This document shows positions 15-64,000 of a stretch of DNA of 64,000 nt, piece after piece. The stretch's first letter is position 1. Each line of letters begins with the position of its first letter. The position numbers and the translations under genes were made by a program. The notes under the pieces are model-generated. The model made no database searches. It worked only from the letters and a program-made list of their open reading frames with translations, and was not told the DNA's origin. The stretch comes from Panopea generosa (lineage: Eukaryota; Mollusca; Bivalvia; Adapedonta; Hiatellidae), in NCBI GenBank assembly GCA_029582155.1, contig CM055901.1, positions 57,100,740 to 57,164,739 on the forward strand, written 5' to 3'.

Positions 15-290
15 ATAAACCATGCCATACTACTTCAGTCAGTAGTGTGTCTGATTCAATCCAGAGTTTGTGAGTTTGATTCCCAGTCTGGCCTTATTTT
101 GACTGGATGATGACTGGGTCTATGGCAAGGAGGGGAAATATATGGTGAAATAATCAGTGACATGCAGAGATAAAATTTTTCTAGTAATTGTTAACTGCTT
201 GCCAGATACCGAGAACGATGATATCAAGTTTTGACTGCGGCAAGTTTACTGAAAAACTGTTGAAAATAGGAAAATACTGTCCATACAAAT
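15..290 (+). mobile_element. Degenerate S2-family SINE
   Basis: A decayed tRNA-like head (TTCAGTCAGTAGTGTGTCTGA, then GTTTGATTCCCAGTCTGGCC, where the B box should be) is followed by the S2 body (tattggtg..., GTGACATGCAGAGAT, GTTAACTGCTTGCC). The same order of blocks is seen in the better copies near 47.9 kb and 4.8 kb. The 5' end is close to the window edge, so the boundary is approximate. No flanking duplication was found. Confidence 0.6.
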
Positions 291-4799: not shown

Positions 4800-5395
4800 T
4801 AAGCTGGGTTCCACTAGCTCAGTCTGTACTGCGTCTGACTGTTAATCCAGGGGTTGTGACTGTGAATCCAGAAGTTGTGACTATTTATCCAGAAGTTGTG
4901 ACTGTTTATCCAGTTAACAACAGTCTCTTGTGATGATAATGAACTTTGTTCATGAACCTTTAAATTCTGAATATATGGGGAAGTAGTCAGTAACTTGCAG
5001 AGATCAGGTGTGTCGAGTATATTTTTTTTGCATGGGGTTTAATGCCATTTTCAAAACATTTCAGGTTATATATAGCATATTCAGTTTTACTGGTGGAGAA
5101 AGGCCTCAGGTTGAATTCAAGTAGAACCACCGTTTTTCCGCAAGTAACTGGCAAACTTTCTCACATAAAGTTTTTGGAGCAAGCATGACTAGAACCTACG
5201 ACCTTAGCAGTGATAGTTATGTGATCTTGAGATGAAGCCTAAGTCCGCTCAGTCACGGAGGAGCCATTTGCCAAGTACTGGTTAACTACCTAGCAGATTC
5301 AAGAAACAATGATTAAGTGTACTGAGCACTAGTAAAATGACTGAAATACTGTTGGTAAAGCAGGTGGACCAAATCCACACAAACAAACAAGCAAT
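4800..5395 (+). mobile_element. S2-family SINE split by a nested S3 SINE
   Basis: The head (CTAGCTCAGTCTGTACTGCG, TCTGACTGTTAATCCAGG) is followed by a small internal triplication of a TCCAGAAGTTGTGACTGT-like segment (4850-4915). Next come the S2 body (GTAACTTGCAGAGATCAGG) and, after the nested element at about 5020-5270, the rest of S2 (CAAGTACTGGTTAACTACC, GACTGAAATACTGTTGG). The two S2 halves join sensibly when the nested copy is removed. This S2 copy is therefore older than the S3 insertion. Confidence 0.8.
5020..5268 (-). mobile_element. S3-family SINE nested in S2
   Basis: On the minus strand the head is TCCGTGACTGAGCGGACTTA, followed by CATCTCAAGATCACATAACT, a B-box-like AAGGTCGTAGGTTCTAGTC, AAAAACTTTATGTGAGAAAG, GCCAGTTACTTGC, then the tail AACTGAATATGC and ATAACCTGAAATG. 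The T run at 5021-5028 (plus strand) is the A-rich 3' end. Flanking GAGTA/AAGTA may be the remains of a target duplication. Head type resembles a class II tRNA (Leu/Ser), which is an inference from the A-box and spacing. Confidence 0.85.
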
Positions 5396-8169: not shown

Positions 8170-8350
8170 AAGAGGTTTGGTTATCTCAGATGGTAGAGCG
8201 TTCGCCCTGTAAGCGAAGGGTACCGGGTTCAAGTCCTGGACTGGCTGCATATTTTTCTTGTCCTGTAACACTGGTTCTAACCAGGTAGACTTAGAATGTG
8301 ATTTGTCTAAGTTGTAATAACTTGTTTCACAATGAAATAAAATGAATTAG
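8170..8350 (+). mobile_element. SINE with well-kept tRNA-like head and S4 tail
   Basis: The head shows an A box (GGTTATCTCAGATGGTAGAG), a 5-bp anticodon-like stem TTCGC/GCGAA around the loop CCTGTAA (TGT in the anticodon position) and a near-perfect B box (GGGTTCAAGTCCTGG). The outer ends do not pair as an acceptor stem, so this is a SINE head and not a tRNA gene. The tail is the S4 3' domain: ACTGGTTCTAACCAGG, TAAGTTGTAATAACTTGTTT, CACAATGAAATAAAATGAAT. It is a second head on a shared tail, a common feature of SINE evolution. Confidence 0.8.
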
Positions 8351-10540: not shown

Positions 10541-12280
10541 ATGTTGCAACAAACACTTTGGGCTTGAGCAGATTAACTAAGTGTTTCCGTTCAAATAGAC
10601 ATCATTGGGAATTTTACAAACAAAATTGCTTGAGTGGATTTCTAGTGTTTTAGTTCAAACATACTACACACTGATTCAACAATGAAACTTGCATGAGTGG
10701 ATTTCTAGTGTTCAAGTTCATACATATTATGCTCTGATTTGACAATGGAAATTGCTTGAGTGGATTTCTAGTGTTTCAGTGCAAAGATACTACACTCTGA
10801 TTTCACAATGAAACTTGCTTGATTGAATTTCTAGTGTTTTAGTTCAAACAAACTAGACTCTAATTTCACAATGAAACTTGCATGAGAGAATTTCTAGTGT
10901 TTTAGTTCGAACATACTACACTCTAATTTCACAATGAAACTTGCTTGATTGAATTTTTAGTGTTTTAGTTCATACATACTACACACTGATTCAACAATGA
11001 AACTTGCTTGAGAGGATTTCTAATGTTTTAGTTCAAACATACTACACTCTAATTTCACAATGAAACTTGCATGAGAGGATTTCTGGTGTTTTAGTTCAAA
11101 CAAACTACACACTGATTTCACAATGAAAATTGCATGAGAGGATCTCTAGTGTTTTAGTTCAAACATACTAGACTCTAATTTCACAATGAAACTTGCATTA
11201 GAGAATTTCAGGTGTTTGAGTGCAAACATACTACACGCTGATTTCACAATGAAAATTGCATGAGAGGATTTCTGGTGTTTTAGTTCAAACATACTACACT
11301 CTAATTTCACAATGAAACTTGCATGAGAGGATTTCTAGTGTTTTAGTTCATACATACTACACACTGATTTCACAATGAAACTTGCTTGAGAGGATTTCTA
11401 GTGTTTTAGTTCGAACATACTACACTCTAATTTCACAATGAAACTTGCATGAGAGGATTTCTAGTGTTTTAGTTCAAACATACTAGACTCTGATTTCACA
11501 ATGAAAATTGCTTGAGAGGATTTTTAGTGTTTTAGTTCAAACATACTACACTCTAATTTCACAATGAAACTTGCATGAGAGGATTTCTAGTGTTTTAGTT
11601 CATACATACTACACACTGATTTCACAATGAAACTTGCTTGAGAGGATTTCTAGTGTTTTAGTGCAAACATACTACATACTAATTTCACAATGAAACTTGC
11701 ATGAGAGGATTTTTAGTGTTTTAGTTCATACGTACTATACACTGATTTCAAAATGAAAATTGCATGAGAGGATTTCTAGTGTTTAAGTTCATACATACTA
11801 CACACTGATTTCACAATGAAAAATGCTTAAGTGGATTTCTAGTGTTATAGTTCATACATACTACATACTGATTTCACAATGAATATTACATGAGAGGATA
11901 TCTAGTGTTATAGTTCATACAAACTTCACTCTGATTTCCCCAATGAAACTTGCTTGAGTGGATTTCTAGTGTTTAAGTTCATACATACTACACTCTGATT
12001 TCACAATGAAACTTGATTGAGTGGATTACTAGTGTTTAAGTTCAAACATACTACATACTGATTTCATAAAGAAACTTGCTTGAGTGGATTTCTAGTGTTT
12101 AAGTTCAAACATATTACACTCTGATTTCCCCAATGAAACTTGCTTGAGTGGATTACTAGTGTTTAAGTTCAAACATACTACATACTGATTTCATAAAGAA
12201 ACTTGCTTGAGTGGATTTCTAGTGTTTAAGTTCAAACATATTACACTCTGATTTCCCCAATGAAACTTGCTTGAGTGGAT

Positions 12281-13040
12281 TTCTAGTGTGTAAGTTAAAA
12301 CATATTACACTCTGATTTCCCCGATGAAACTTGCTTGAGTGGATTTCTAGTGTTTTAGTTCAAACATATTACACTCTGATTTCACAATGAAAATTGCTTG
12401 AATGGTTCTCTAGTGTTTAAGTTCATACATACTACACTCTGATTTCATAATAAAATTTGCTTGAGTGGATTTCTAGTGTTTTAGTCCAAAATACTACACA
12501 CTGATTTCACAATGAAACTTGCTTGAGTGGATTTCTAGTGTTTAAGTTCATACATATTACACTCTGATTTCCCCAATGAAACTTGCTTGAGTGGATTTCT
12601 AGTGTTTAAGTTCAAACATATTACACTCTGATTTCCCCAATGAAACTTGCTTGAGTGGATTTCTAGTGTGTAAGTTAAAACATATTACACTCTGATTTCC
12701 CCGATGAAACTTGCTTGAGTGGATTTCTAGTGTTTTAGTTCAAACATATTACACTCTGATTTCACAATGAAAATTGCTTGAATGGTTCTCTAGTGTTTAA
12801 GTTCATACATACTACACTCTGATTTCATAATAAAATTTGCTTGAGTGGATTTCTAGTGTTTTAGTCCAAAATACTACACACTGATTTCACAATGAAACTT
12901 GCTTGAGTGGATTTCTAGTGTTTAAGTTCATACATATTACACTCTGATTTCCCCAATGAAACTTGCTTGAGTGGATTTCTAGTGTTTAAGTTAAAACATA
13001 TTACACTCTGATTTCCCCCACGAAACTTGCTTGAGTAGAT
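12281..13040 (+). repeat. Six-unit higher-order repeat in the 63-bp satellite
   Basis: A marker run (TTCTAGTGTGTAAGTTAAAA, then CCCCGATG, GGTTCTCTAGTG, TTTCATAATAAAATTTGC, TAGTCCAAAATAC) starts at 12281 and recurs at 12661, a shift of 380 bp (six units). The same marker order appears a third time from 13481. The copies are nearly identical, which implies recent duplication of a six-unit block. Confidence 0.85.
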
Positions 13041-13140
13041 TTCTAGTGTTTTAGTTCAAACATATTACACTCTGATTTCACAATGAAAATTGCTTGAATG
13101 GTTTTCTAGTGTTTAAGTTCATACATACTACACTCTGATT

Positions 13141-14090
13141 TCACAATAAAACTTGCTTGAGAGGATTTCTAGTGTTTAAGTTCAAACATACTACACACTG
13201 ATTCCACAATGAAACTTGCTTGAGTAAAATTTTAGTGTTTAAGTTCATACATATTACATTTTGATTCACAATGAATCTTGCTTGAGTTGATTTCCGGTGT
13301 TTAAGTTCAAACACACTACACACGGATTTCACAAAGAAAATTGCTTGAGAGGATTTCTAGTGTTTAAGTTCAAACATACTAAACTCTGATTTCACAATGA
13401 AACTTGCTTGAGTGGATTTCTAGTTTTTAAGTTCAAACATATTACACTCTGATTTCACAATGAAACTTGCTTGAGTGGATTTCTAGTGTGTAAGTTAAAA
13501 CATATTACACTCTGATTTCCCCGATGAAACTTGCTTGAGTGGATTTCTAGTGTTTTAGTTCAAACATATTACACTCTGATTTCACAATGAAAATTGCTTG
13601 AATGGTTCTCTAGTGTTTAAGTTCATACATACTACACTCTGATTTCATAATAAAACTTGCTTGAGTGGATTTCTAGTGTTTTAGTCCAAAATACTACACA
13701 CTGATTTCACAATGAAACTTGCTTGAGTGGATTTCTAGTGTTTAAGTTCAAACATATTACACTCTGATTTTCCCAATGAAACTTGCTTGAGTGGATTTCT
13801 AGTGTTTAAGTTAAAACATATTACACTCTGATTTCCCCCACGAAACTTGCTTGAGTGGATTTCTAGTGTTTTAGTTCAAACATATTACACTCTGATTTCA
13901 CAATGAAAATTGCTTGAATGGTTTCTAGTGTTTAAGTTCATACATACTACACACTGATTCCACAATGAAACTTGCTTGAGTAAAATTTTAGTGTTTAAGT
14001 TCATACATATTACATTTTGATTCACAATGAATCTTGCTTGAGTTGATTTCCGGTGTTTAAGTTCAAACACACTACACACGGATTTCACAA
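13141..14090 (+). repeat. Twelve-unit duplication in the 63-bp satellite
   Basis: The marker TTTCCGGTGTTTAAGTTCAA occurs at 13291 and 14047, exactly 756 bp (12 x 63) apart, with matching neighbours (TAAAATTTTAGTG, TTACATTTTGATTCACAATG). This is also why two minus-strand frames with nearly the same translation exist here. They are array shadows, not genes. Confidence 0.85.
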
Positions 14091-15390
14091 AGAAACTTGC
14101 TTGAGAGGATTTCTAGTGTTTAAGTTCAAACATACTACACTCTGATTTCACAATGAAACTTGCTTGAGTGGATTTCTAGTTTTTAAGTTCAAACATATTA
14201 CACTCTGATTTCACAATGAAACTTGCTTGAGTGGATTTCTAGTGTTCAAGTTCAAACATACTACACTCTGATTTCACAATGAAAATTGCTTGAGAGGATT
14301 TCTAGTGTTTAAGTTCATACATACTACACACTGATTTCACAACGAAAATTGCTTGAGAGGATTTCTAGTGTTCAAGTTCATACATACTTCACTGATTTCA
14401 CAATGAAAATTGCTTGAGTGGATTTCTAGTGTTCAAGTTCATACATTCTACACACTGATTTCACAATGAAAATTGCTTGAGTGGATTTCTAGTGTTTAAG
14501 TTCATACATATTACACTCTGATTCCACAATGAAACTTGCTTGAGTGGATTTCTAGTGTTTAAGTTCAAACATACTACACACTGATTTCACAATGAAACTT
14601 GCTTGAGTTGATTTCTAGTGTTCAATTTTAAACATTCTACACACTGATTTCACAATGAAACTTGCTTGAGTGGATTACTAGTGTTCAATTTCAAACATAC
14701 TACACACTGATTTCACAATGAAACTTGATTGAGTGGATTTCTAGTGTTTGAGTTCATACATACTACACTCTGATTTCACAACAAACAATTGCTTGACTGG
14801 ATTTCTAGTGTTTAAGTTCAAACATACTACACTCTGATTCCACAATGAAAATTGCTTCAGTGGATTTCTAGTGTTTTAGTTCAAACATACTACACTCTGA
14901 TTTCACAATGAAAATTGCTTGAGTGGATTTCTAGTGTTTAAGTTCAAACATATTACACTCTGATTTCACATTGAAACTTGCTTGAGAGGATTTTTAGTGT
15001 TTAAGTTCAAACATACTACACTCTGATTTCACAATGAAACTTGCTTGAGTGGATTTCTTTTGTGTAAGTTTAAACATTCTCCATTCTGATTTCACAATGA
15101 AAATTGCTTGAGTGGATTTGTAGTGTTTAAGTTAAAACATATTACATTTTGATTTCACAATGAAACTTGCCTGAGTGAATTTGGAGTGTTTAAGTTCAAA
15201 CATACTCCATTTGGATTTCACAATTGGATTTCTAGTGTTTAAGTTCAAACATATTCCATTTTGATTTCACAATGAAAATTGCTTGAGTCGATTTCTAGTG
15301 TTAAGTTCAAACATACTACATTTTGATTTCACAATGAAAATTGCTTGAGTGGATTTCTAGTGTTTAAATTCAACCATACTCCTGTCTTGA

Positions 15391-25174: not shown

Positions 25175-25325
25175 GAGCCTTTAAGAGTAAGAGTGGTCTA
25201 AGTTGCCATCTCAATATTACTTACCTCTCTACACTGAGGTCTGGGGTTCAAGCCTAATTAAGTTTAATAACATTATGCAAGAGAGTTGGCCAGTAACTTG
25301 CAGACAAATGATGATTCTTGCAAGA
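25175..25325 (+). mobile_element. S3 SINE, 5' part, interrupted by a tandem array
   Basis: Head GTAAGAGTGGTCTAAGTTGC, CCATCTCAATATTACTTACC, CACTGAGGTCTGGGGTTCAA (B-box region), GGCCAGTAACTTGCAGACAA, then GATTCTTGCAAGATTCATTC, where the 29-bp array begins. The S3 3' end resumes at 26062. Confidence 0.8.
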
Positions 25326-26058
25326 TTCATTCTAGGATCCTGGTTCTTCTCAGATTCATTCTGGGATCCTGGTTTTTCTCAGATTCATTCTCGGATCCTG
25401 GTTCTTCTCAGATTCATTCTGGGATCCTGGTTTTTCTCAGATTCATTCTCGGATCCTGGTTCTTCTCAGATTCATTCTGGGATCCTGGTTTTTCTCAGAT
25501 TCATTCTGGGATCCTGGTTCTTCTTGGATTCATTCTGGGATCCTGGTTCTTCTCGGGTTCATTCTGGTATCCCAATTCTTCTCAGAATCATTCTGGGATC
25601 CAAGTTATTCTTAGATTCATTCTGGGGTCCTGGTTCTTCTCAGATTAGTTCTTGAATCCTGGTTTTCCCCATATTCATTCTGTTGTCCTGGTTCTTCTCA
25701 CATTCATTCTGGAATCCTGGTTCTTCTCAGATTCATTCTGGGGTCCTGGTTCTTCTCAGATTAGTTATGGAATCCTTGTTCTTCCCAGATTCATTCTGTG
25801 GTCCTGGTTCTTCTCAGGATCATTATGGAATCCTGGTTCTTCTCAGATTAATTATGGGATCCTGGTTGTTCCCAGATTCATTCTGTGGTCCTGGTTCTTC
25901 TCAGATTCATCCTGGGATTGTGGTTCTTCCCAGATTCATTCTTGGGTCCTGGTTCTTCTCTGATTCATTCTAGGATCCTGGTTATTCTCAAATTCATTCT
26001 GGGGTCCTGGTTTTTCTCAGGTATTCTGGGATCCTGGTTCTTCTCATATTCATTTAGA
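25320..26058 (+). repeat. 29-bp minisatellite grown from an S3 SINE tail
   Basis: Unit AGATTCATTCTGGGATCCTG GTTCTTCTC (29 bp, about 25 units). The ancestral S3 tail reads like TTCTACTCAGATTCATTCTG AGGTCTTCC, so the unit is an S3 segment. The frame closes every 87 bp (three units), which explains the long FILGSWFFSDSF-type frames in several registers. They are not proteins. Confidence 0.95.
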
Positions 26059-36164: not shown

Positions 36165-37404
36165 GAGATTATGATACCCTTATCAGAGTTAATAATGCCC
36201 TTACCAGAGATAATGATGCCCTTTGCCATGATTATGATGCCCTTACCAGAGTTAATGATGCCCTTACCAGAAATAATGATGCCCTAACCAGAGATTATGA
36301 TGCCCTTTGCCATGATTATGATGCCCTTACCAGAGTTAATGATGCCCTTACCAGAAATAATGATGCCCTAACCAGAGATAATGATGCCCTTACCAGAGGT
36401 AATGGTGCCCTTACCAGAGTTAATGATGCCCTTACCAGAGATTATTATGCCCTTACCCAAGATTATGATGCCCTTACCAGAGTTAATGATGCCCTTACCA
36501 GAGATTATGATGCCCTTACCAGAGTTAATGATGCCCTTACCAGATATTATGATGCCATTACCCAAGATTATGATGCCCTTACCAGAGTTAATGATGCCCT
36601 TAACAGAGATTATGATGCCTTTACCAGAGTTTATAATGCCCTTACCAGAGATTATGATGCCCTTACCAGAGTTAATGATGCCCTTACCAGGGATTATGAT
36701 GCCCTTACCAGAGGTAATGGTGCCCTTACCAGAGATTATGATGCCCTTACCAGAGTTAATGATGCCCTTACTAGAGATTATGTTGCCCTTACCAGAGTTA
36801 ATGATGCCCTTACCCAAATTATGATGTCCTTACTCAGGATTATGATGCCCTTACCAGAGATAATGATGCCCTTACTCAAGATTATGATGCCCTTACCAGA
36901 GATTATGATGCCCTTACTCAAGATTATGATGCTCTTACCAGAGATTATGATGCCCTTACCAGAGATTATGATGCCCTTTCCCAAGATTATGATGCCCTTA
37001 CCAGAGTGAATGAAGCCTTTACCCAAGATTATGATGCCCTTACCAGAGTTAATGAAGCCTTTACCCAAGATTATGATGCCCTTACCAGAGTTAATGATGC
37101 CCTTACCAGAGATAATGATGCCCTTACTCAAGATTATGATGCCCTTACCAGAAATTATGATGCCCTTACCTAAGATTGAGATGCCCTTATCAGAGATTAT
37201 GATGCCCTTACCAGAGTTAATGATGCCCTTACCAGATATTATGATGCCCTTACCAGAGTTAATGATGCCCTTACCCGAGATTATGATGCCCTTACCAGAG
37301 ATTATGATTCCCTTACACAAGATTATTATGCCCTTACCAGAGATTATGATGCCCTTACCAGAGTTAATGATGCCCATACTAGATATTATGATGCCCTTTT
37401 TCCT
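36165..37404 (+). repeat. 21-bp minisatellite, about 59 units
   Basis: Unit ATGATGCCCTTACCAGAGATT, with GTTA, AAGA and CAAGATT variants alternating. An 84-bp (four-unit) higher-order block marked by GCCCTTTGCCATG occurs at 36218 and 36302. Both strands are open over hundreds of bases (MPLPEIM on plus, GKGIIIS on minus). These frames are consequences of the stop-free 21-bp unit. The array ends only about 18 bp before the DNA transposon. Confidence 0.95.
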
Positions 37405-45916: not shown

Positions 45917-46236
45917 CAGTTGTTGTAGTTGTATGGTGTTTAGCGTCGCTTTCAACAATTTTTCAGTCATATCGCGACGGTGTCTACTTGAGACAGTATT
46001 CTGAGCGCTGTCACATTGGAGTATCATGCCGCAGACACATGGTATGATACCCGAACCAGTCACATTATACTGACACTGGGCCGACCAGACCTAGAACTCT
46101 CCTCTAAATGCTGAGCGTCAAGCGAGGAAGCTTCTTGTACCATTTTTAAAGTCTTTGGTATGACCCGGCCGGGGGTCGAACCCATGACCTTCCGCATGCG
46201 AGGCGGACGCTCTACCACTAGACCACACCGCGGTCT
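45917..46236 (-). mobile_element. S1-family SINE, best-preserved copy
   Basis: Minus-strand head GTGGTCTAGTGGTAGAGCGT (A box), CCGCCTCGCATGCGGAAGGT with an anticodon-like stem CCGC/GCGG around CTCGCAT, TGGGTTCGACCCCCGGCCGG (near-perfect B box), GTCATACCAAAGACTTTAAA, GAGGAGAGTTCTAGGTCTGG and TGTCTGCGGCATGATACTCC; its 3' end has TTGTTGAAAGCGACGCTAAA, CACCATACAAC. TGTATTTA at 45909-45916 and 46237-46244 is a likely 8-bp target duplication. Little divergence suggests a relatively recent insertion. Confidence 0.92.
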
Positions 46237-47887: not shown

Positions 47888-48195
47888 ATAGCCGAGCCTG
47901 ATAAGCTCAGTCGTTGGCGCATTTGACTATCAAATTAGGGGTCGTGAGTTCGAATCCTTGCCTGGCCACAATCTCCGTGATGGTTGATATACAACATTGC
48001 GTCTCATTATCATTCGTCTCTCACTACTGATTCAAGTTGGACAGTTATCAGTTACTTGCAGAGATGGGGTGAGCTCGAGTTCCGGTTAACCTTCCAGGAT
48101 CCCAGGAAACAGTGGTTCTAAGGTTAACTGATTGTCTGTTAGCCCCCAATGGCATAAAATGATGCTAAATATTCAATTAATCAATCATAAATAGA
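47888..48195 (+). mobile_element. S2-family SINE, full length
   Basis: Head GCCTGATAAGCTCAGTCGTT GGCG (A box), TTTGACTATCAAATTAGGGG, TCGTGAGTTCGAATCCTTGC (B box), CTGGCCACAATCTCCGTGAT, then CGTCTCATTATCATTCGTCT, CAGTTATCAGTTACTTGCAG, AGATGGGGTGAGCTCGAGTT and tail GATTGTCTGTTAGCCCCCAA, ATTCAATTAATCAATC. Inverted with respect to the S2 copy at 46.86 kb, with about 750 bp between. Confidence 0.9.
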
Positions 48196-49004: not shown

Positions 49005-49185
49005 GAGTTGTTCATAGCCAATATCACTTACCTCTCACAGCTGAAGTTGTTGTTTGAGCCAGACGAATACTCTAAAAACTTGGATGAGAATCATGTGCAG
49101 AAGATTGCCAGTTAATTGTGGAAGGACGATTCTTCTACTCAGCTTCACATTTATGTATCTGAGGTGTTCCACCACTACAAGCAGA
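49005..49185 (+). mobile_element. S3 SINE 5' part at the left edge of the 79-bp array
   Basis: TAGCCAATATCACTTACCTC, CAGCTGAAGTTGTTGTTTGA (B-box region), CTAAAAACTTGGATGAGAAT, GATTGCCAGTTAATTGTGGA, TTCTTCTACTCAGCTTCACA, TTTATGTATCTGAGGTGTTC CACCACTAC. It then passes directly into the S2-like head AGACCCGGTTAGCTCAGTAG, the first array unit. The S3 3' end is found beyond the array at about 54.86 kb. Confidence 0.8.
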
Positions 49186-52100
49186 CCCGGTTAGCTCAGT
49201 AGGTAGCGTGTCTGACTATCCATTTATGTTTATGTGTCTGAGGTGTTCCTCCACAAACAATGGGTCCAGTTAGCTCAGTCAGTAGCGTGTCTGACTATCC
49301 ATTCATGTTTATGTGTCTGAGGTGTTCCTCCACAAACAGTGGGTCCAGTTAGCTCAGTCAGTAGTGTGTCTGACTATCCATTTATGTTTATGTGTCTGAG
49401 GTGTTCTTCTACAAACAGTTGGTCCGGCTAGCTCAGTTGGTAGTGTGTTTGACTATCCATTCATGTTTATGTGTCTGAGGTGTTCCTCCACAAATAGTGG
49501 GTCCAGTTAGCTCAGTCAGTAGTGTGTCTGACTATCCATTTATGTTTATGTGTCTGAGGTGTTCCTCCACAAACAATGGGTCCAGTTAGCTCAGGTGGTA
49601 GTGTGTCTGACTATCCATTCATGTTTATGTGTCTGAGGTGTTCCTCCACAAATAGTGGGTCCAGTTAGCTCAGTCAGTAGTGTGTATGACTATCCATTCA
49701 TGTTTATGTGTCTGAGGTGTTCCTCCACAAATAGTGGGTCCAGTTAGTTCAGTCAGTAGTGTGTCTGACTATCCATTCATGTTTATGTGTCTGAGGTGTT
49801 CCTCCACGAGCAGTTGGTCCGGTTAGCTCAGTTGGTAGCGTGTCTGACTATCCATTCATGTTTATGTGTCTGAGGTGTTCCTCCACAAACAGTTGGTCCA
49901 GTTAGCTCAGATGGTAGTGTGTCTGACTATCCATTCATGTTTATGTGTCTGAGGTGTTCCTCCACGAGCAGTTAGTCCGGTTAGCTCAGATGGTAGTGTG
50001 TTTGACTATTCATTCATGTTTATGTGTCTGAGGTGCTCTTCCACTAGCAGTTGGTCCGGTTAGCTCAGTTGGTAGTGTGTCTGACTATTCATTCATGTTT
50101 ATGTGTCTGAGGTGCTCTTCCACTAGCAGTTGGTCCAGTTAGCTCAGTTGGTAGCGTGTCTGACTATCCATTCATGTTTATGTGTCTGAGGTGTTCCTCC
50201 ACAAACAGTTGGTCCAGTTAGCTCAGTCAGTAGTGTGTCTGACTATCCATTCATGTTTATGTGTCTGAGGTGTTCCTCCACGAGCAGTTGGTCCGGTTAG
50301 CTCAGTTGGTAGTGTGTCTGACTATTCATTCATGTTTATGTGTCTGAGGTGCTCTTCCACTAGCAGTTGGTCCAGTTAGCTCAGTTGGTAGCGTGTCTGA
50401 CTATCCATTCATGTTTATGTGTCTGAGGTGTTCCTCCACAAACAGTTGGTCCAGTTAGTTCAGTCAGTAGTGTGTCTGACTATCCATTCATGTTTATGTG
50501 TCTGAGGTGTTCCTCCACAAACAGTTGGTCCAGTTAGCTCAGTCAGTAGTGTGTCTGACTATCCATTCATGTTTATGTATCTGAGGTGTTCCTCCACAAA
50601 TAGTGGGTCCAGTTAGTTCAGTCAGTAGTGTGTCTGACTATCCATTCATGTTTATGTATCTGAGGTGTTCCTCCACAAATAGTGGGTCCAGTTAGCTCAG
50701 TCAGTAGTGTGTCTGACTATCCATTCATGTTTATGTATCTGAGGTGTTCCTCCACAAATAGTGGGTCCAGTTAGTTCAGTCAGTAGTGTGTCTGACTATC
50801 CATTCATGTTTATGTATCTGAGGTGTTCCTCCACAAACAGTGGGTCCAGTTAGCTCAGTCAGTAGTGTGTCTGACTATCCATTCATGTTTATGTATCTGA
50901 GGTGTTCCTCCACAAATAGTGGGTCCAGTTAGTTCAGTCAGTAGTGTGTCTGACTATCCATTCATGTTTATGTATCTGAGGTGTTCCTCCACAAACAGTG
51001 GGTCCAGTTAGTTCAGTCAGTAGTGTGTCTGACTATCCATTCATGTTTATGTGTCTGAGGTGTTCCTCCACAAACAGTGGGTCCAGTTAGCTCAGTCAGT
51101 AGTGTGTCTGACTTTCCATTCATGTTTATGTGTCTGAGGTGTTCCTCCACAAACAGTGGGTCCAGTTAGTTCAGTCAGTAGTGTGTCTGACTATCCATTC
51201 ATGTTTATGTGTCTGAGGTGTTCCTCCACAAACAATGGGTCCAGTTAGCTCAGTCAGTAGTGTGTCTGACTATCCATTCATGTTTATGTGTCTGAGGTGT
51301 TCCTCCACGAGCAGTTGGTCCAGTTAGCTCAGTTGGTAGTGTGTCTGACTATCCATTCATGTTTATGTATCTGAGGTGTTCCTCCACGAGCAGTTGGTCC
51401 AGTTAGTTCAGTCAGTAGTGTGTCTGACTTTCCATTCATGTTTATGTGTCTGAGGTGTTCCTCCACTAGCAGTTGGTCCAGTTAGTTCAGTCAGTAGTGT
51501 GTCTGACTATCCATTCATGTTTATGTGTCTGAGGTGTTCCTCCACGAGCAGTTGGTCCAGTTAGCTCAGTTGGTAGTGTGTCTGACTATCCATTCATGTT
51601 TATGTATCTGAGGTGTTCCTCCACGAGCAGTTGGTCCAGTTAGTTCAGTCAGTAGTGTGTCTGACTTTCCATTCATGTTTATGTGTCTGAGGTGTTCCTC
51701 CACTAGCAGTTGGTCCAGTTAGTTCAGTCAGTAGTGTGTCTGACTATCCATTCATGTTTATGTATCTGAGGTGTTCCTCCACGAGCAGTTGGTCCAGTTA
51801 GTTCAGTCAGTAGTGTGTCTGACTATCCATTCATGTTTATGTATCTGAGGTGTTCCTCCACAAATAGTGGGTCCAGTTAGTTCAGTCAGTAGTGTGTCTG
51901 ACTATCCATTCATGTTTATGTGTCTGAGGTGTTCCTCCACAAATAGTGGGTCCAGTTAGCTCAGTCAGTAGTGTGTCTGACTATCCATTCATGTTTATGT
52001 GTCTGAGGTGTTCCTCCACGAGCAGTTGGTCCAGTTAGCTCAGTTGGTAGTGTGTCTGACTATCCATTCATGTTTATGTATCTGAGGTGTTCCTCCACGA

Positions 52101-54858
52101 GCAGTTGGTCCAGTTAGTTCAGTCAGTAGTGTGTCTGACTATCTATTCATGTTTATGTGTCTGAGGTGTTCCTCCACAAATAGTGGGTCCAGTTAGCTCA
52201 GTCAGTAGTGTGTCTGACTATCCATTCATGTTTATGTGTCTGAGGTGTTCCTCCACGAGCAGTTGGTCCAGTTAGCTCAGTTGGTAGTGTGTCTGACTAT
52301 CCATTCATGTTTATGTATCTGAGGTGTTCCTCCATGAGCAGTTGGTCCAGTTAGTTCAGTCAGTAGTGTGTCTGACTATCTATTCATGTTTATGTGTCTG
52401 AGGTGTTCCTCCACAAATAGTGGGTCCAGTTAGCTCAGTCAGTAGTGTGTCTGACTATCCATTCATGTTTATGTGTCTGAGGTGTTCTTCCACTAGCAGT
52501 TGGTCCAGTTAGTTCAGTCAGTAGTGTGTCTGACTATCTATTCATGTTTATGTGTCTGAGGTGTTCCTCCACAAATAGTGGGTCCAGTTAGCTCAGTCAG
52601 TAGTGTGTCTGACTATCCATTCATGTTTATGTGTCTGAGGTGTTCCTCCACGAGCAGTTGGTCCAGTTAGCTCAGTTGGTAGTGTGTCTGACTATCCATT
52701 CATGTTTATGTATCTGAGGTGTTCCTCCACGAGCAGTTGGTCCAGTTAGCTCAGTTGGTAGTGTGTCTGACTATCCATTCATGTTTATGTGTCTGAGGTT
52801 CTCTTCCACTAGCAGTTGGTCCAGTTAGTTCAGTCAGTAGTGTGTCTGACTATCCATTCATGTTTATGTGTCTGAGGTGTTCCTCCACTAGCAGTTGGTC
52901 CAGTTAGTTCAGTCAGTAGTGTGTCTGACTATCTATTCATGTTTATGTGTCTGAGGTGTTCTTCCACTAGCAGTTGGTCCAGTTAGCTCAGTTGGTAGCG
53001 TGTCTGACTATCCATTCATGTTTATGTGTCTGAGGTGTTCCTCCACGAGCAGTTGGTCCAGTTAGTTCAGTCAGTAGTGTGTCTGACTATCCATTCATGT
53101 TTATGTGTCTGAGGTGTTCTTCCACTAGCAGTTGGTCCAGTTAGCTCAGTTGGTAGCATGTCTGACTATCCATTCATGTTTATGTATCTGAGGTGTTCCT
53201 CCACAAACAGTGGGTCCAGTTAGTTCAGTCAGTAGTGTGTCTGACTATCCATTCATGTTTATGTATCTGAGGTGTTCCTCCACAAACAGTGGGTCCAGTT
53301 AGCTCAGTCAGTAGTGTGTCTGTCTATCCATTCATGTTTATGTGTCTGAGGTGTTCCACCACAAACAGTTGTCCAGTTAGCTCAGTCAGTAGTGTGTCTG
53401 ACTATCTATTCATGTTTATGTGTCTGAGGTGTTCCTCCACAAACAGTGGGTCCAGTTAGCTCAGTCAGTAGTGTGTCTGACTATCCATTCATGTTTATGT
53501 ATCTGAGGTGTTCCTCCACTAGCAGTTGGTCTGGTTAGCTCAGTTGGTAGTGTGTCTGACTATCCATTCATGTTTATGTATCTGAGGTGTTCCTCCACAA
53601 ACAGTGGGTCCAGTTAGTTCAGTCAGTAGTGTGTCTGACTATCCATTCATGTTTATGTGTCTGAGGTGTTCCACCACAAACAGTGGGTCCAGTTAGCTCA
53701 GTCAGTAGTGTGTCTGACTATCTATTCATGTTTATGTGTCTGAGGTGTTCTTCCACTAGCAGTTGGTCCAGTTAGCTCAGTTGGTAGCGTGTCTGACTAT
53801 CCATTCATGTTTATGTGTCTGAGGTGTTCCTCCACGAGCAGTTGGTCCAGTTAGCTCAGTTGGTAGCATGTCTGACTATCCATTCATGTTTATGTATCTG
53901 AGGTGTTCCTCCACAAACAGTGGGTCCAGTTAGTTCAGTCAGTAGTGTGTCTGACTATCCATTCATGTTTATGTGTCTGAGGTGTTCCACCACAAACAGT
54001 GGGTCCAGTTAGCTCAGTCAGTAGTGTGTCTGACTATCCATTCATGTTTATGTATCTGAGGTGTTCCTCCACAAACAGTGGGTCCAGTTAGTTCAGTCAG
54101 TAGTGTGTCTGACTATCCATTCATGTTTATGTGTCTGAGGTGTTCCACCACAAACAGTGGGTCCAGTTAGCTCAGTCAGTAGTGTGTCTGACTATCCATT
54201 CATGTTTATGTATCTGAGGTGTTCTTCCACTAGCAGTTGGTCCGGTTAGCTCAGTTGGTAGCGTGTCTGACTATCCATTCATGTTTATGTGTCTGAGGTG
54301 TTCCTCCACGAGCAGTTGGTCCAGTTAGCTCAGTTGGTAGCATGTCTGACTATCCATTCATGTTTATGTGTCTGAGGTGTTCCTCCACTAGCAGTTGGTC
54401 CAGTTAGCTCAGTCAGTAGTGTGTCTGACTTTCCATTCATGTTTATGTGTCTGAGGTGTTCCTCCACTAGCAGTTGGTCCGGTTAGCTCAGTTGGTAGTG
54501 TGTTTGACTATCCATTCATGTTTATGTGTCTGAGGTGTTCCTCCATGAGCAGTTGGTCCGGTTAGCTCAGTTGGTAGTGTGTTTGACTATCCATTCATGT
54601 TTATGTGTCTGAGGTGTTCCTCCACGAGCAGTTGGTCCGGTTAGCTCAGATGGTAGAGTGTTTGACTATCAATTCATGTTTATGTGTCTGAGGTGTTCCT
54701 CCATGAGCAGTTGGTCCGGTTAGCTCAGATGGTAGCGCATTTGACTATCCATTTATGTTTATGTGTCTGAGGTGTTCCTCCACGAGCAGTTGGTCCGGTT
54801 AGCTCAGTTTGTAGCATGTTTGACTACCCATTTATGTTTATGTGTCTAAGGTGTTAAT
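49155..54858 (+). repeat. 79-bp satellite, about 72 units, S3-tail / S2-head chimera
   Basis: The unit is GGTCCAGTTAGCTCAGTCAG, TAGTGTGTCTGACTATCCAT, TCATGTTTATGTGTCTGAGG, TGTTCCTCCACAAACAGTG. Spacing measured as 79 bp (GGGTCC at 49262 and 49341). The first 40 bp match the S2 tRNA-like head, including the A box TAGCTCAGTTGG but stopping before the B box. The last 35 bp match the S3 tail (TCATTCTGAGGTCTTCCTCC AC). Variants differ mainly in GCTCAG/GTTCAG, GTCAGTAG/TTGGTAG and CAAACAGTG/CTAGCAGTT/CGAGCAGTT. A three-unit (237-bp) higher-order block recurs at 51306/51543 and 52017/52254. Copies at the right end (from 54.55 kb) carry the more S2-like GGTTAGCTCAGATGGTAGCG. Confidence 0.95.
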
Positions 54859-54925
54859 TGGTTCCCATAATTATGGCCTGTTATGTATTGAAAATGGCGT
54901 CAATTCCATTAAAAATATCTTTGTA
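54855..54925 (+). mobile_element. S3 3' end at the right edge of the 79-bp array
   Basis: GGTTCCCATAATTATGGCCT GTTATGTATTGAAAATGGC, AATTCCATTAAAAATA match the S3 end (GGATGCCATAATTATTTAGC, CTGTAATATATT in the 47.8 kb copy). So the array sits between the two halves of one S3 copy. Confidence 0.65.
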
Positions 54926-57904: not shown

Positions 57905-58118
57905 GTTAAGCACCCAGTATCTAGATGATAGTTCTAGGGCAGTACACCCAGTATCTAGATGATAGTTCTAGGGCAGTACACCCAGTATATAGATGATAGT
58001 TCTAGGGCAGTATACCCAGTATCTAGATGATAGTTCTAGAGCAGTACACCCAGTATCTAGATGATAGTTCTAGGGCAGTACAACCAGTATCTAGATGATA
58101 GTTCTAGGGCAGTACAGC
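57905..58118 (+). repeat. 34-bp array derived from an S1 segment, 6 units
   Basis: Unit CACCCAGTATCTAGATGATA GTTCTAGGGCAGTA; starts measured at 57911 and 57945 (34 bp). S1 copies carry the related segment GCATTTGGAGGAGAGTTCTA GGTC (4.58 kb). The sequence right of the last unit, CAGCCTGTGTCAG, also resembles S1 (CCAGTGTCAG). It directly abuts the 40-bp array. Confidence 0.85.
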
Positions 58119-62704: not shown

Positions 62705-63415
62705 TTCATGCTGAAGTAATAGGTTTGAGTCCAGTTCTGTCGAAAGATTTTAAGCTATAAAATTCGGTCATGGGTTTGAGCCCAGTTCTGTCAAAAGATT
62801 TTAAGTTATAAAATTCGGTCATGGGTTTGAGCCCAGTTCTGTCGAAAGATTTTAAGTTATAAAATTCGGTCATGGGTTTGAGCCCAGTTCTGCCGAAAGA
62901 TTTTAAGTTAAAAATTCGGTAATAGGTTTGAGCCCAGTTCTGTTGAAAGATTTTAAGTTATAAAATTCGGTCATGGGTTTGAGGGCGGTTCTGTCGAAAG
63001 ATTTTAAGTTATAAAATTTGGTTATGGGTTTGAGTCCAGTTCTGCCAAAAGATTTAAGTTATAAAATTCGGTCATGGGTTTGAGCTCAGTTCTGCCGAAA
63101 GATTTTAAGTTATAAAATTTGGTCATGGGTTTTAGCCCAGTTCTGTTGAAAGATTTTAAGCTATAAAATTCGGTCATGGGTTTGAGCCCAGTTCTGTCGA
63201 AAGATTTTAAGTTATAAAATTTGGTCATGGGTTTGAGTTCAGTTCTGTCAAAAGATTTAAAGTTATAAAATTTGGTCATGGGTTTCAGCCCAGTTCTGAC
63301 AAAAGATTTAAAGTTATAAAATTTGGTCGTAGGTTTCAGCCCAGTTCTGTCAAAAGATTTAAAGTTATAAAATTTGGTCATGGGTATCAGTCCAGTTCTG
63401 TCGAAAGATTTTAAG
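62705..63415 (+). repeat. 51-bp array with a B-box-like core, about 13 units
   Basis: Unit AATTCGGTCATGGGTTTGAG, CCCAGTTCTGTCGAAAGATT, TTAAGTTATAA; spacing 51 bp (62761 to 62812). GGTCATGGGTTTGAGCCCAG and the following CAAAGATTTTAAG text match the T-arm/B-box and start of body of S1 (GGTCATGGGATCGATCCCCG, ACCAAAGATTTAAAATGG at 38.5 kb). The first unit is preceded by GCTGCTCTAAGGTTGC, perhaps the decayed head. A 17-codon period opens the 119-codon minus-strand frame, which is not a gene. Confidence 0.9.
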
Positions 63416-64000
63416 TACTAAGTTCTATGTCATGGAACTAAACTTTCAATTTGAGTTAGAATTGCTTTTGTAGATTTTCGACTCTTGGTTATTAGATGCG
63501 ATTTTATATCATCTACTTAACATATTTGAAGTGGTCAATCAAGTTTATGATCTATTAAATGTCCAAAGTGACCAAATGACCATCCAGAGTTTCAGTATAA
63601 AGTGACAGTATGTGTTCACTGCTATGTGTGGGTAATCAATTGAACCCTATTCCGAAATGTTGATATCGCGATCTATTGAACCTTTGATAGTGACCAAGAT
63701 ACTTTCGAGTGCTTCAATTTATTTTTTTAAACTTTTCAATGACATCTCACTAGCATGATGAAAGTTTGAATATTTTATGACAATTAATTTGTCGCACAAG
63801 TCAGTTTTGTAGGTTGTTTTCTTGTGTGTGATATCATCAAATATCTATAGAACGGTTGTAATTTTCTGAAGGTATACAAAATATCAATAGATTTAATATT
63901 AAATTAACTTAATGTTTGCAATAAATTTTTCGTAATGGTTAGGAAATACTTTCTCCTGTGTATATTGCTGGTTTCATTCTATGTTATTTGGATGGCAAAC
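63416..64000. other. No gene seen
   Basis: AT-rich to the window edge; nothing recognised. Confidence 0.4.

What the first reader, a model, noticed from the sequence alone, without database searches (positions are those of the whole stretch)
49155..54858. A satellite made from the junction of two SINEs, carrying about 72 pol III A boxes
Each 79-bp unit fuses the end of the S3 tail to the first 40 bp of the S2 tRNA-like head. The head part keeps the A box (TAGCTCAGTTGG) but the unit stops before any B box. So about 72 half-promoters lie in one direction over 5.7 kb. Such an array could bind TFIIIC weakly, act as a boundary, or simply be inert. Satellites born from a SINE-SINE junction are rarely traced this clearly.
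Basis: partly seen in the sequence, partly recalled or inferred. Interest (0 to 1): 0.7.

Follow-up and report, generated by a model that had tools for sequence, protein, structure and literature searches.

The report
A satellite grown inside two SINEs
In a geoduck clam genome, a 79-base repeat copied 72 times in a row was built from pieces of two small mobile elements and lies inside one of them; it is probably inert, but similar repeats born inside mobile elements occur at other places in this genome.

Summary
The array is real: 72 full units of 79 bp (one of 78) plus a 19-bp partial unit, window 49150-54855, 93% matches. The two-SINE origin is confirmed, with corrections. About 45 bp is the 5' head of SINE S2: 8 single-copy matches fetched for the edge-unit head (of 15 listed) all lie in S2 copies. 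The rest is an internal segment of SINE S3, not the end of its tail. The array sits inside one S3 copy: S3 37-173 runs into unit 1, and S3 191-240 resumes after the last unit. The junction was found nowhere else, within the limits of the searches.

The A box quoted is exact in 21 of 72 units and is among the more variable parts of the unit; there is no B box and no TTTT. A pol III or boundary role is not supported.

Arrays derived from SINE pieces recur: 5 of 13 arrays I tested in this window, and S2-head arrays at several other loci. The genome is Panopea generosa by exact assembly size. New member of a known kind: SINE-derived satellite.

The parts
49150..54855 (+). 79-bp satellite array, 72 full units and a 19-bp partial unit
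   Evidence: TRF; unit cutting
49019..49147 (+). left flank: S3 SINE copy, S3 37-154, continuing into unit 1 up to S3 173
   Evidence: BLAST with S3 consensus; local alignment
49150..49228 (+). unit 1: S3 part followed by sequence aligned with S2 2-48, from the very 5' end of S2; 82.3% identical to the array consensus
49192..49203 (+). A-box-like site of unit 1 (TAGCTCAGTAGG); the corresponding site recurs in each unit, in the exact form TAGCTCAGTTGG in 21 of 72
54865..54915 (+). right flank: 3' part of S3 (191-240) resumes about 10 bp after the array; no S2 hit lies between
   Evidence: BLAST; alignment
47891..48187 (+). nearest S2 SINE copy (S2 1-286 in the numbering), about 1 kb upstream, same strand
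   Evidence: BLAST
25323..26054 (+). S3-internal array: 29 bp x 25.3, S3 137-159, embedded in an S3 copy (S3 16-155 on the left, 137-229 on the right)
62722..63416 (+). 51 bp x 13.7 array resembling S3 63-112 (35 of 50 aligned positions identical), with a B-box-like GGTTTGAGCCC; no SINE found in its flanks
57911..58116 (+). 34 bp x 6.1 array resembling S1 119-142; no SINE found in its flanks
4836..4913 (+). 21 bp x 3.7 array inside an S2 copy

Best explanation
A SINE-derived satellite that expanded in place inside one S3 SINE copy. The proposed history has three steps. (1) An S2 SINE, or only its first 45 bp or so, came to lie in an S3 copy at about S3 174. (2) A tandem duplication joined S2 at about position 45 back to S3 at about position 150, making the 79-bp unit (about 34 bp S3 + 45 bp S2). 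(3) Unequal exchange, gene conversion or replication slippage expanded it to 72 units and homogenised the middle. Shown here: the S3-array-S3 layout, the S2 identity of the head, divergent units at the left edge (unit 1) and the right edge, and repeated blocks of 3, 5 and 8 units. Inferred: the order of events, the joining mechanism and the inertness. The array most likely has no promoter function; it is a by-product of a genome in which arrays grow repeatedly inside SINE copies.
For: S3 37-173 on the left and S3 191-240 on the right of the array. 8 of 8 fetched single-copy matches to the edge-unit head lie in S2 copies. Unit 1 aligns with S2 from its 5' end. Identity to consensus is 0.823 in unit 1 and 0.861-0.937 in the last five units, against 0.949 for units 4-67. 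Exact 200-mers recur at offsets of 237, 395 and 632 bp. Of six other array loci examined for flanking SINE, four have S2 continuing beyond the array on its 3' side, a fifth (L093) shows its S2 5' edge only, and one (L089) shows no SINE. A-box variability, no B box, no TTTT.
Against: The S2 body is absent at the right end (no S2 hit there), so a full nested S2 insertion needs an extra deletion; insertion of a 45-bp fragment is as likely. By eye I saw no target-site duplication or clear microhomology at the joints. No unexpanded intermediate was found. Units 2 and 3 are not divergent (0.949, 0.962). The S3 match within the unit is short (18 bp). No reads, population or transcript data were available, so inertness is inferred.
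Confidence: 0.75

Rival explanations
1. The array was formed elsewhere, for example by rolling-circle copying of a circle carrying an S3-S2 junction, and inserted into this S3 copy as a block.
For: No S2 body at the right end, and about 17 bp of S3 (174-190) are replaced by the array.
Against: No other locus with the junction was found (best candidates only). The S3 part of unit 1 is continuous with the S3 copy on the left, and a short stretch that this S3 copy has beyond the S3 consensus (TTTATG and neighbours at the array start) recurs in the units.
Confidence: 0.13
2. A functional array of pol III half-promoters, weak TFIIIC sites or a chromatin boundary.
For: 72 A-box-like sites in one orientation, each within 2 mismatches of the recalled consensus.
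Against: The A box is more variable than the unit average, rank 61 of 79 windows. No B box, the main TFIIIC contact (recalled), and no TTTT. Some sibling arrays keep other parts of the head, including a B-box-like part without the A box.
Confidence: 0.03
3. The head comes from a tRNA gene or from a different SINE with the same head, not from S2.
For: The head is tRNA-like, and the consensus unit is only 77% identical to the S2 consensus over 43 aligned columns.
Against: 8 of the 15 listed matches outside the locus were fetched, including the best five (86-94% identical); all 8 lie in S2 copies, two of them (L097, L099) with S2 recognised only to about position 111-114, and two (L098, L100) sharing their flanks and so probably one event.
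Confidence: 0.03
4. Copy number or junction is an assembly artefact.
For: Only the assembly was seen, no reads.
Against: Published subread N50 is 26.5 kb (PMC10729735) and the array is 5.7 kb, so single reads can span it; the 72 units include 51 distinct sequences.
Confidence: 0.04

Closest known systems
SINE-derived satellites (sSats) of squamate reptiles (PMC10702118: outline and abstract, part 1 of 3 of Results, Discussion)
   Same: Units are parts of a SINE and shorter than it; arrays run from a few to hundreds of units; terminal units run on into the SINE; longer arrays are more homogeneous and can show alternating sub-variants; independent origins.
   Different: Here the unit joins pieces of two SINE families, and the host is S3 on both sides. 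Squamate units are around 70 to 290 nt with a subtelomeric preference; this locus is at 57.15 of 76.67 Mb. That paper reports some units with extra sequence of unknown origin; in the parts I read I saw no unit made of two SINEs.
Hy/Pol III of Hydromantes salamanders and Satellite 1 of Xenopus laevis (rows of a table in PMC9659126)
   Same: Tandem sequence listed as derived from the tRNA-related region of a SINE-like element.
   Different: Copy number and layout of those families were not seen (original papers not read). Here an S3 piece is joined to the tRNA-related part.
PcH-sat of the limpet Patella caerulea (PMC11121367, abstract)
   Same: Molluscan satellite with a large segment similar to a SINE (Nin-SINE).
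   Different: 179-bp unit, about 10% of the genome, mainly pericentromeric; one SINE named as source.
Oyster satellites with monomer segments from different TEs (PMC11136912, passages)
   Same: Monomers joined from pieces of more than one transposable element; bivalve.
   Different: Dominance of Helitron-associated satellites; the word SINE does not occur in the main text held.

Membership tests
SINE-derived satellite (sSat, PMC10702118) | Repeat unit derived from part of a SINE and shorter than it | tested here: met
   Unit 79 bp = part of S3 (consensus 242 bp) + S2 head (consensus 291 bp)
SINE-derived satellite (sSat, PMC10702118) | At least four tandem units | tested here: met
   72 full units
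SINE-derived satellite (sSat, PMC10702118) | Terminal unit continues into the source SINE on one or both sides | tested here: met
   S3 continues on both sides; S2 does not continue
SINE-derived satellite (sSat, PMC10702118) | A single SINE source (usual, not required: some squamate units hold other sequence) | tested here: not met
   Two SINE families in the unit
SINE-derived satellite (sSat, PMC10702118) | Subtelomeric preference (a tendency of the set, not a requirement) | tested here: inconclusive
   This locus is internal, C8:57.15 of 76.67 Mb; one locus cannot test a tendency
Classical satellite DNA family | Many loci or very long heterochromatic arrays | tested here: not met
   Unit found at one 5.7-kb locus (best candidates only)
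Pol III type 2 promoter | A box | tested here: inconclusive
   A-box-like in 72 of 72 units within 2 mismatches, quoted form in 21; not conserved
Pol III type 2 promoter | B box downstream | tested here: not met
   0 matches to GGTTCGANNCC, GWTCRANNC and one looser pattern on either strand of the array
Pol III type 2 promoter | T-run terminator | tested here: not met
   No TTTT on either strand of the array
TFIIIC boundary / ETC site | TFIIIC occupancy | not testable with these tools
   No ChIP data

The most novel reading that the evidence does not exclude
The tRNA-like head of S2 is a preferred birthplace of satellites in Panopea generosa: separate S2 copies have each grown a head-derived array in place, with different cut points, and the 79-bp array is a two-SINE case of that process. 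One genome would then show satellite birth at every stage, from 3 copies to several hundred.
Probability: 0.4. Interest if true: 0.55.

Novelty: new member of a known kind. Interest (0 to 1): 0.36.

Why it matters
How a single sequence becomes a satellite is hard to study when the source is lost. Here the source SINE is recognisable on both sides of the array, and the same genome holds arrays embedded in S2 copies from about 3 units (L092) to 53 units (C16), plus a C11 array of at least 235 units of which only the S2 5' edge was checked. The published assembly reports 23.6% of the genome as tandem repeat (PMC10729735); SINE-internal growth may be one contributor, by how much is unknown. This single array is a modest addition; the genome-wide set is what would be useful.

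Tried and rejected
Functional A-box array: rejected. Hairpins as the reason for array birth: in S3 the strongest predicted 40-base DNA hairpin window (135-174) does cover the S3 pieces of both S3 arrays, but the S2 stretch 16-54 is not among the five strongest S2 windows, so hairpins do not explain the S2 cases. Rfam at gathering scores gave one match in the window, tRNA-like, 8175-8247, outside the array. ARAGORN called one tRNA-Ala at 46162-46233, which overlaps the 5' end of an S1 SINE copy. The first S2/S3 consensus attempt was discarded because minus-strand loci had not been turned round; redone. S2 positions are 4 lower than in later calls (30, 32, 50, 52, 56, 62), where four 5' bases were added. 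Literature: a narrow search on chimeric SINE satellites (5 of 6 terms required) and one on TFIIIC, A box, B box and SINE (all six terms required) listed no papers, which says little; 'Panopea' with 'satellite DNA' listed 3 papers, none on geoduck satellites by title or abstract start. The MetaSINE paper is not held, so S1, S2 and S3 were not assigned to named SINE families.

Limits: the head-versus-body comparison uses three 12-base motifs, exact matches, periods 25-55 bp; pairs are counted, so long arrays dominate; single counts include array copies; the 3' motif has no single count; loci were counted by eye, and the head listing stops at C4:9.60 Mb. The pattern (1344 + 1335 matches; reversed control 56 + 113) also hits arrays unrelated to S2, for example C2:37.12 Mb, so its count is not a count of S2 arrays. 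Of the arrays taken from it, C1:63.11 (score 32) and C1:59.55 (score 22) are not clearly S2. Most S2 arrays were found with head queries and so are biased to the head; arrays of the mid-body and 3' parts exist too.

Full report
WHAT IS THERE. TRF finds 49150-54855, period 79, 72.2 copies, 93% matches. Cutting gives 72 full units, 71 of 79 bp and one of 78 bp, then a partial unit. The 72 units include 51 distinct sequences; mean pairwise identity is 0.920; exact 200-mers recur at offsets 237, 395 and 632 bp, which are 3, 5 and 8 units, so blocks of several units were copied. Two linked sub-types dominate: AAA...TCA in 32 of 72, and GAG or TAG...TTG in 20 of 72; 12 of 72 are GAG or TAG...TCA and 8 are others. 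The window lies at C8:57100740-57164739 of an assembly of 1,474,161,289 bases in 39 contigs, the figures printed for Panopea generosa; C8 and C9 also have the lengths printed there as chromosome and scaffold N50 (passages of PMC10729735).

ORIGIN. I built consensus sequences for S2 and S3 from 29 loci each; the S2 loci are close relatives of one copy in the window, so that consensus is of one subfamily. The left flank matches S3 37-154 and continues as S3 to position 173 within unit 1; the right flank matches S3 191-240. The array is therefore inside an S3 copy, where S3 174-190 would be. Unit 1 then aligns with S2 2-48. For the two right-edge units the genome search listed 48 matches: 33 in this array and 15 elsewhere, each of the 15 limited to the head and its near surroundings. 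I fetched 8 of these 15, including the best five; all 8 lie in S2 copies. Two of the 8 (L097, L099) show S2 only to about position 111-114, and two (L098, L100) share their flanks and may be one event. So the chimera holds, with internal S3 sequence in place of the S3 tail end. The joint reads S2 ...GACTATC + CATTTATG + TTTATGTGTCTGAGG; CATTTATG also stands at 49148-49155 in the S3 copy at the array start, which is why I split the unit as about 45 bp S2 and 34 bp S3. That split is my reading of the letters. In the consensus unit itself the S3 match is 18 bp with one mismatch.

IS IT UNIQUE? A two-unit query gave 93 matches. Outside this array, alignments that run through the S3 part are those to arrays on C16 and C11, at 72-77% identity; their 43- and 42-bp units map to S2. 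Four further matches reach 13 bases past the head, to query position 92; three were fetched (L013, L019, L020) and are S2 copies, the fourth (C5:43.37 Mb) was not fetched. The S3 part alone gave 46 matches, all in this array. These searches score only the best candidates, so a diverged single junction elsewhere could be missed.

PROMOTER READING. A-box forms: TAGTTCAGTCAG 23, TAGCTCAGTCAG 21, TAGCTCAGTTGG 21, others 7, of 72. Diversity per site in 70 units (the 78-bp unit and unit 1 left out): A box 0.130, whole unit 0.078, positions 1-26 (S3 part) 0.038; the A box ranks 61 of 79 twelve-base windows from most conserved. No B box by three patterns and no TTTT, both strands. That the B box is the main TFIIIC contact is recalled, not from a call.

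SIMILAR ARRAYS. In the window TRF lists 58 overlapping rows; I chose 13 array units and tested each against S1, S2 and S3 with 300 shuffles. Four exceeded all 300: 25323 (S3), 49150 (S2), 57911 (S1), 62722 (S3). 4836 (S2) was reached by 2 of 300 and lies within an S2 copy. I count these 5. Of the others, 57401 was reached by 4, 29797 by 7, 36165 by 11, and five by 132-283 of 300. Flank tests found SINE sequence around 4836 and 25323 but none beside 57911 and 62722, so those two rest on the unit alone. Elsewhere: C16 43 bp x 53.4, next to a 71 bp x 10.8 array of which 45 bp match S1; C11 42 bp, 235 copies in the 9.9 kb fetched, left end at L093 532; C1:87.06 48 bp; C2:25.49 21 bp; C2:15.68 25 bp. 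Six loci were checked for SINE beyond the array: L090, L092, L009 and L019 have S2 continuing on the 3' side (L090, L092 and L019 also show S2 at or beyond the 5' edge); L093 shows the S2 5' edge only, its 3' end not being in the stretch; L089 shows none.

HEAD VERSUS BODY. Tandem pairs of a 12-base head motif: 870 genome-wide (reversed-pattern control 39); of a mid-body motif: 17 (control 4); of a 3' motif: 52 (control 0). Single counts: head 25,561, mid-body 15,117. The pair rate is about 30 times higher for the head than for mid-body. By loci, the head listing shows 10 up to C4:9.60 Mb, two of which (C1:87.06, C1:87.72) share a unit; in the same span mid-body has 0 and the 3' motif 1. Over the whole genome mid-body has 6 loci and the 3' motif 6; the head total is not known because its listing is cut. 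Units cut the head at different points: A box without B box (C16, C11, C2:50.31, C1:87.06 and others), B-box-like without A box (C3:7.17), neither (C2:15.68), head joined to body (C3:6.95). This argues for varied cut points, not for selection of an A box.

AGAINST MY READING. The S2 body is missing at this locus, unlike the four S2 arrays with flanking S2. By eye I saw no target-site duplication or clear microhomology. The head preference rests on three motifs and could reflect array length, motif choice, or a head shared by several SINE subfamilies.

KNOWN KIND. SINE-derived satellites are described in squamates (PMC10702118: outline and abstract, part 1 of 3 of Results, Discussion), a limpet (PMC11121367: abstract), salamanders and Xenopus (table rows in PMC9659126), and oysters have monomers with segments from different TEs (passages of PMC11136912). 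This locus is a new member, with a two-SINE unit.

Noticed in passing
window 25323-26054: 29 bp x 25.3 array grown inside an S3 copy at S3 137-159, next to the S3 region used by the 79-bp array; both lie under the strongest predicted hairpin window of S3 (135-174).
   Followed up: partly
window 62722-63416: 51 bp x 13.7 array resembling S3 63-112, consensus with a B-box-like GGTTTGAGCCC: a B-box-like array about 8 kb from the A-box array.
   Followed up: partly
window 57911-58116: 34 bp x 6.1 array resembling S1 119-142.
   Followed up: partly
L009 3860-7003 (C16:51.60 Mb): An S2-head array (43 bp x 53.4) and an array partly matching S1 39-83 (71 bp x 10.8) lie 78 bp apart.
   Followed up: partly
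L010 and L093 (C11:42.10 Mb): 42-bp S2-head array filling the 9.9 kb fetched (235 copies), with matches listed up to C11:42,109,647 in a cut-off listing.
   Followed up: partly
C3:6949792-6950170: 46-bp unit joining the S2 head to an S2 body segment, a head-body counterpart of the S3-S2 unit.
   Followed up: no
window 35-54: 20-base exact match to the head part of the 79-bp unit near the window start; no S2 hit there at E <= 1e-4.
   Followed up: no
window 10611-15380: 63-bp array of about 75 copies with no S1, S2 or S3 similarity above chance (173 of 300 shuffles reach its score).
   Followed up: no
window 36165-37398: 21 bp x 58.8 array with long stop-free stretches in several frames, as expected of a period divisible by 3; whether it is part of a gene was not looked into.
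   Followed up: no
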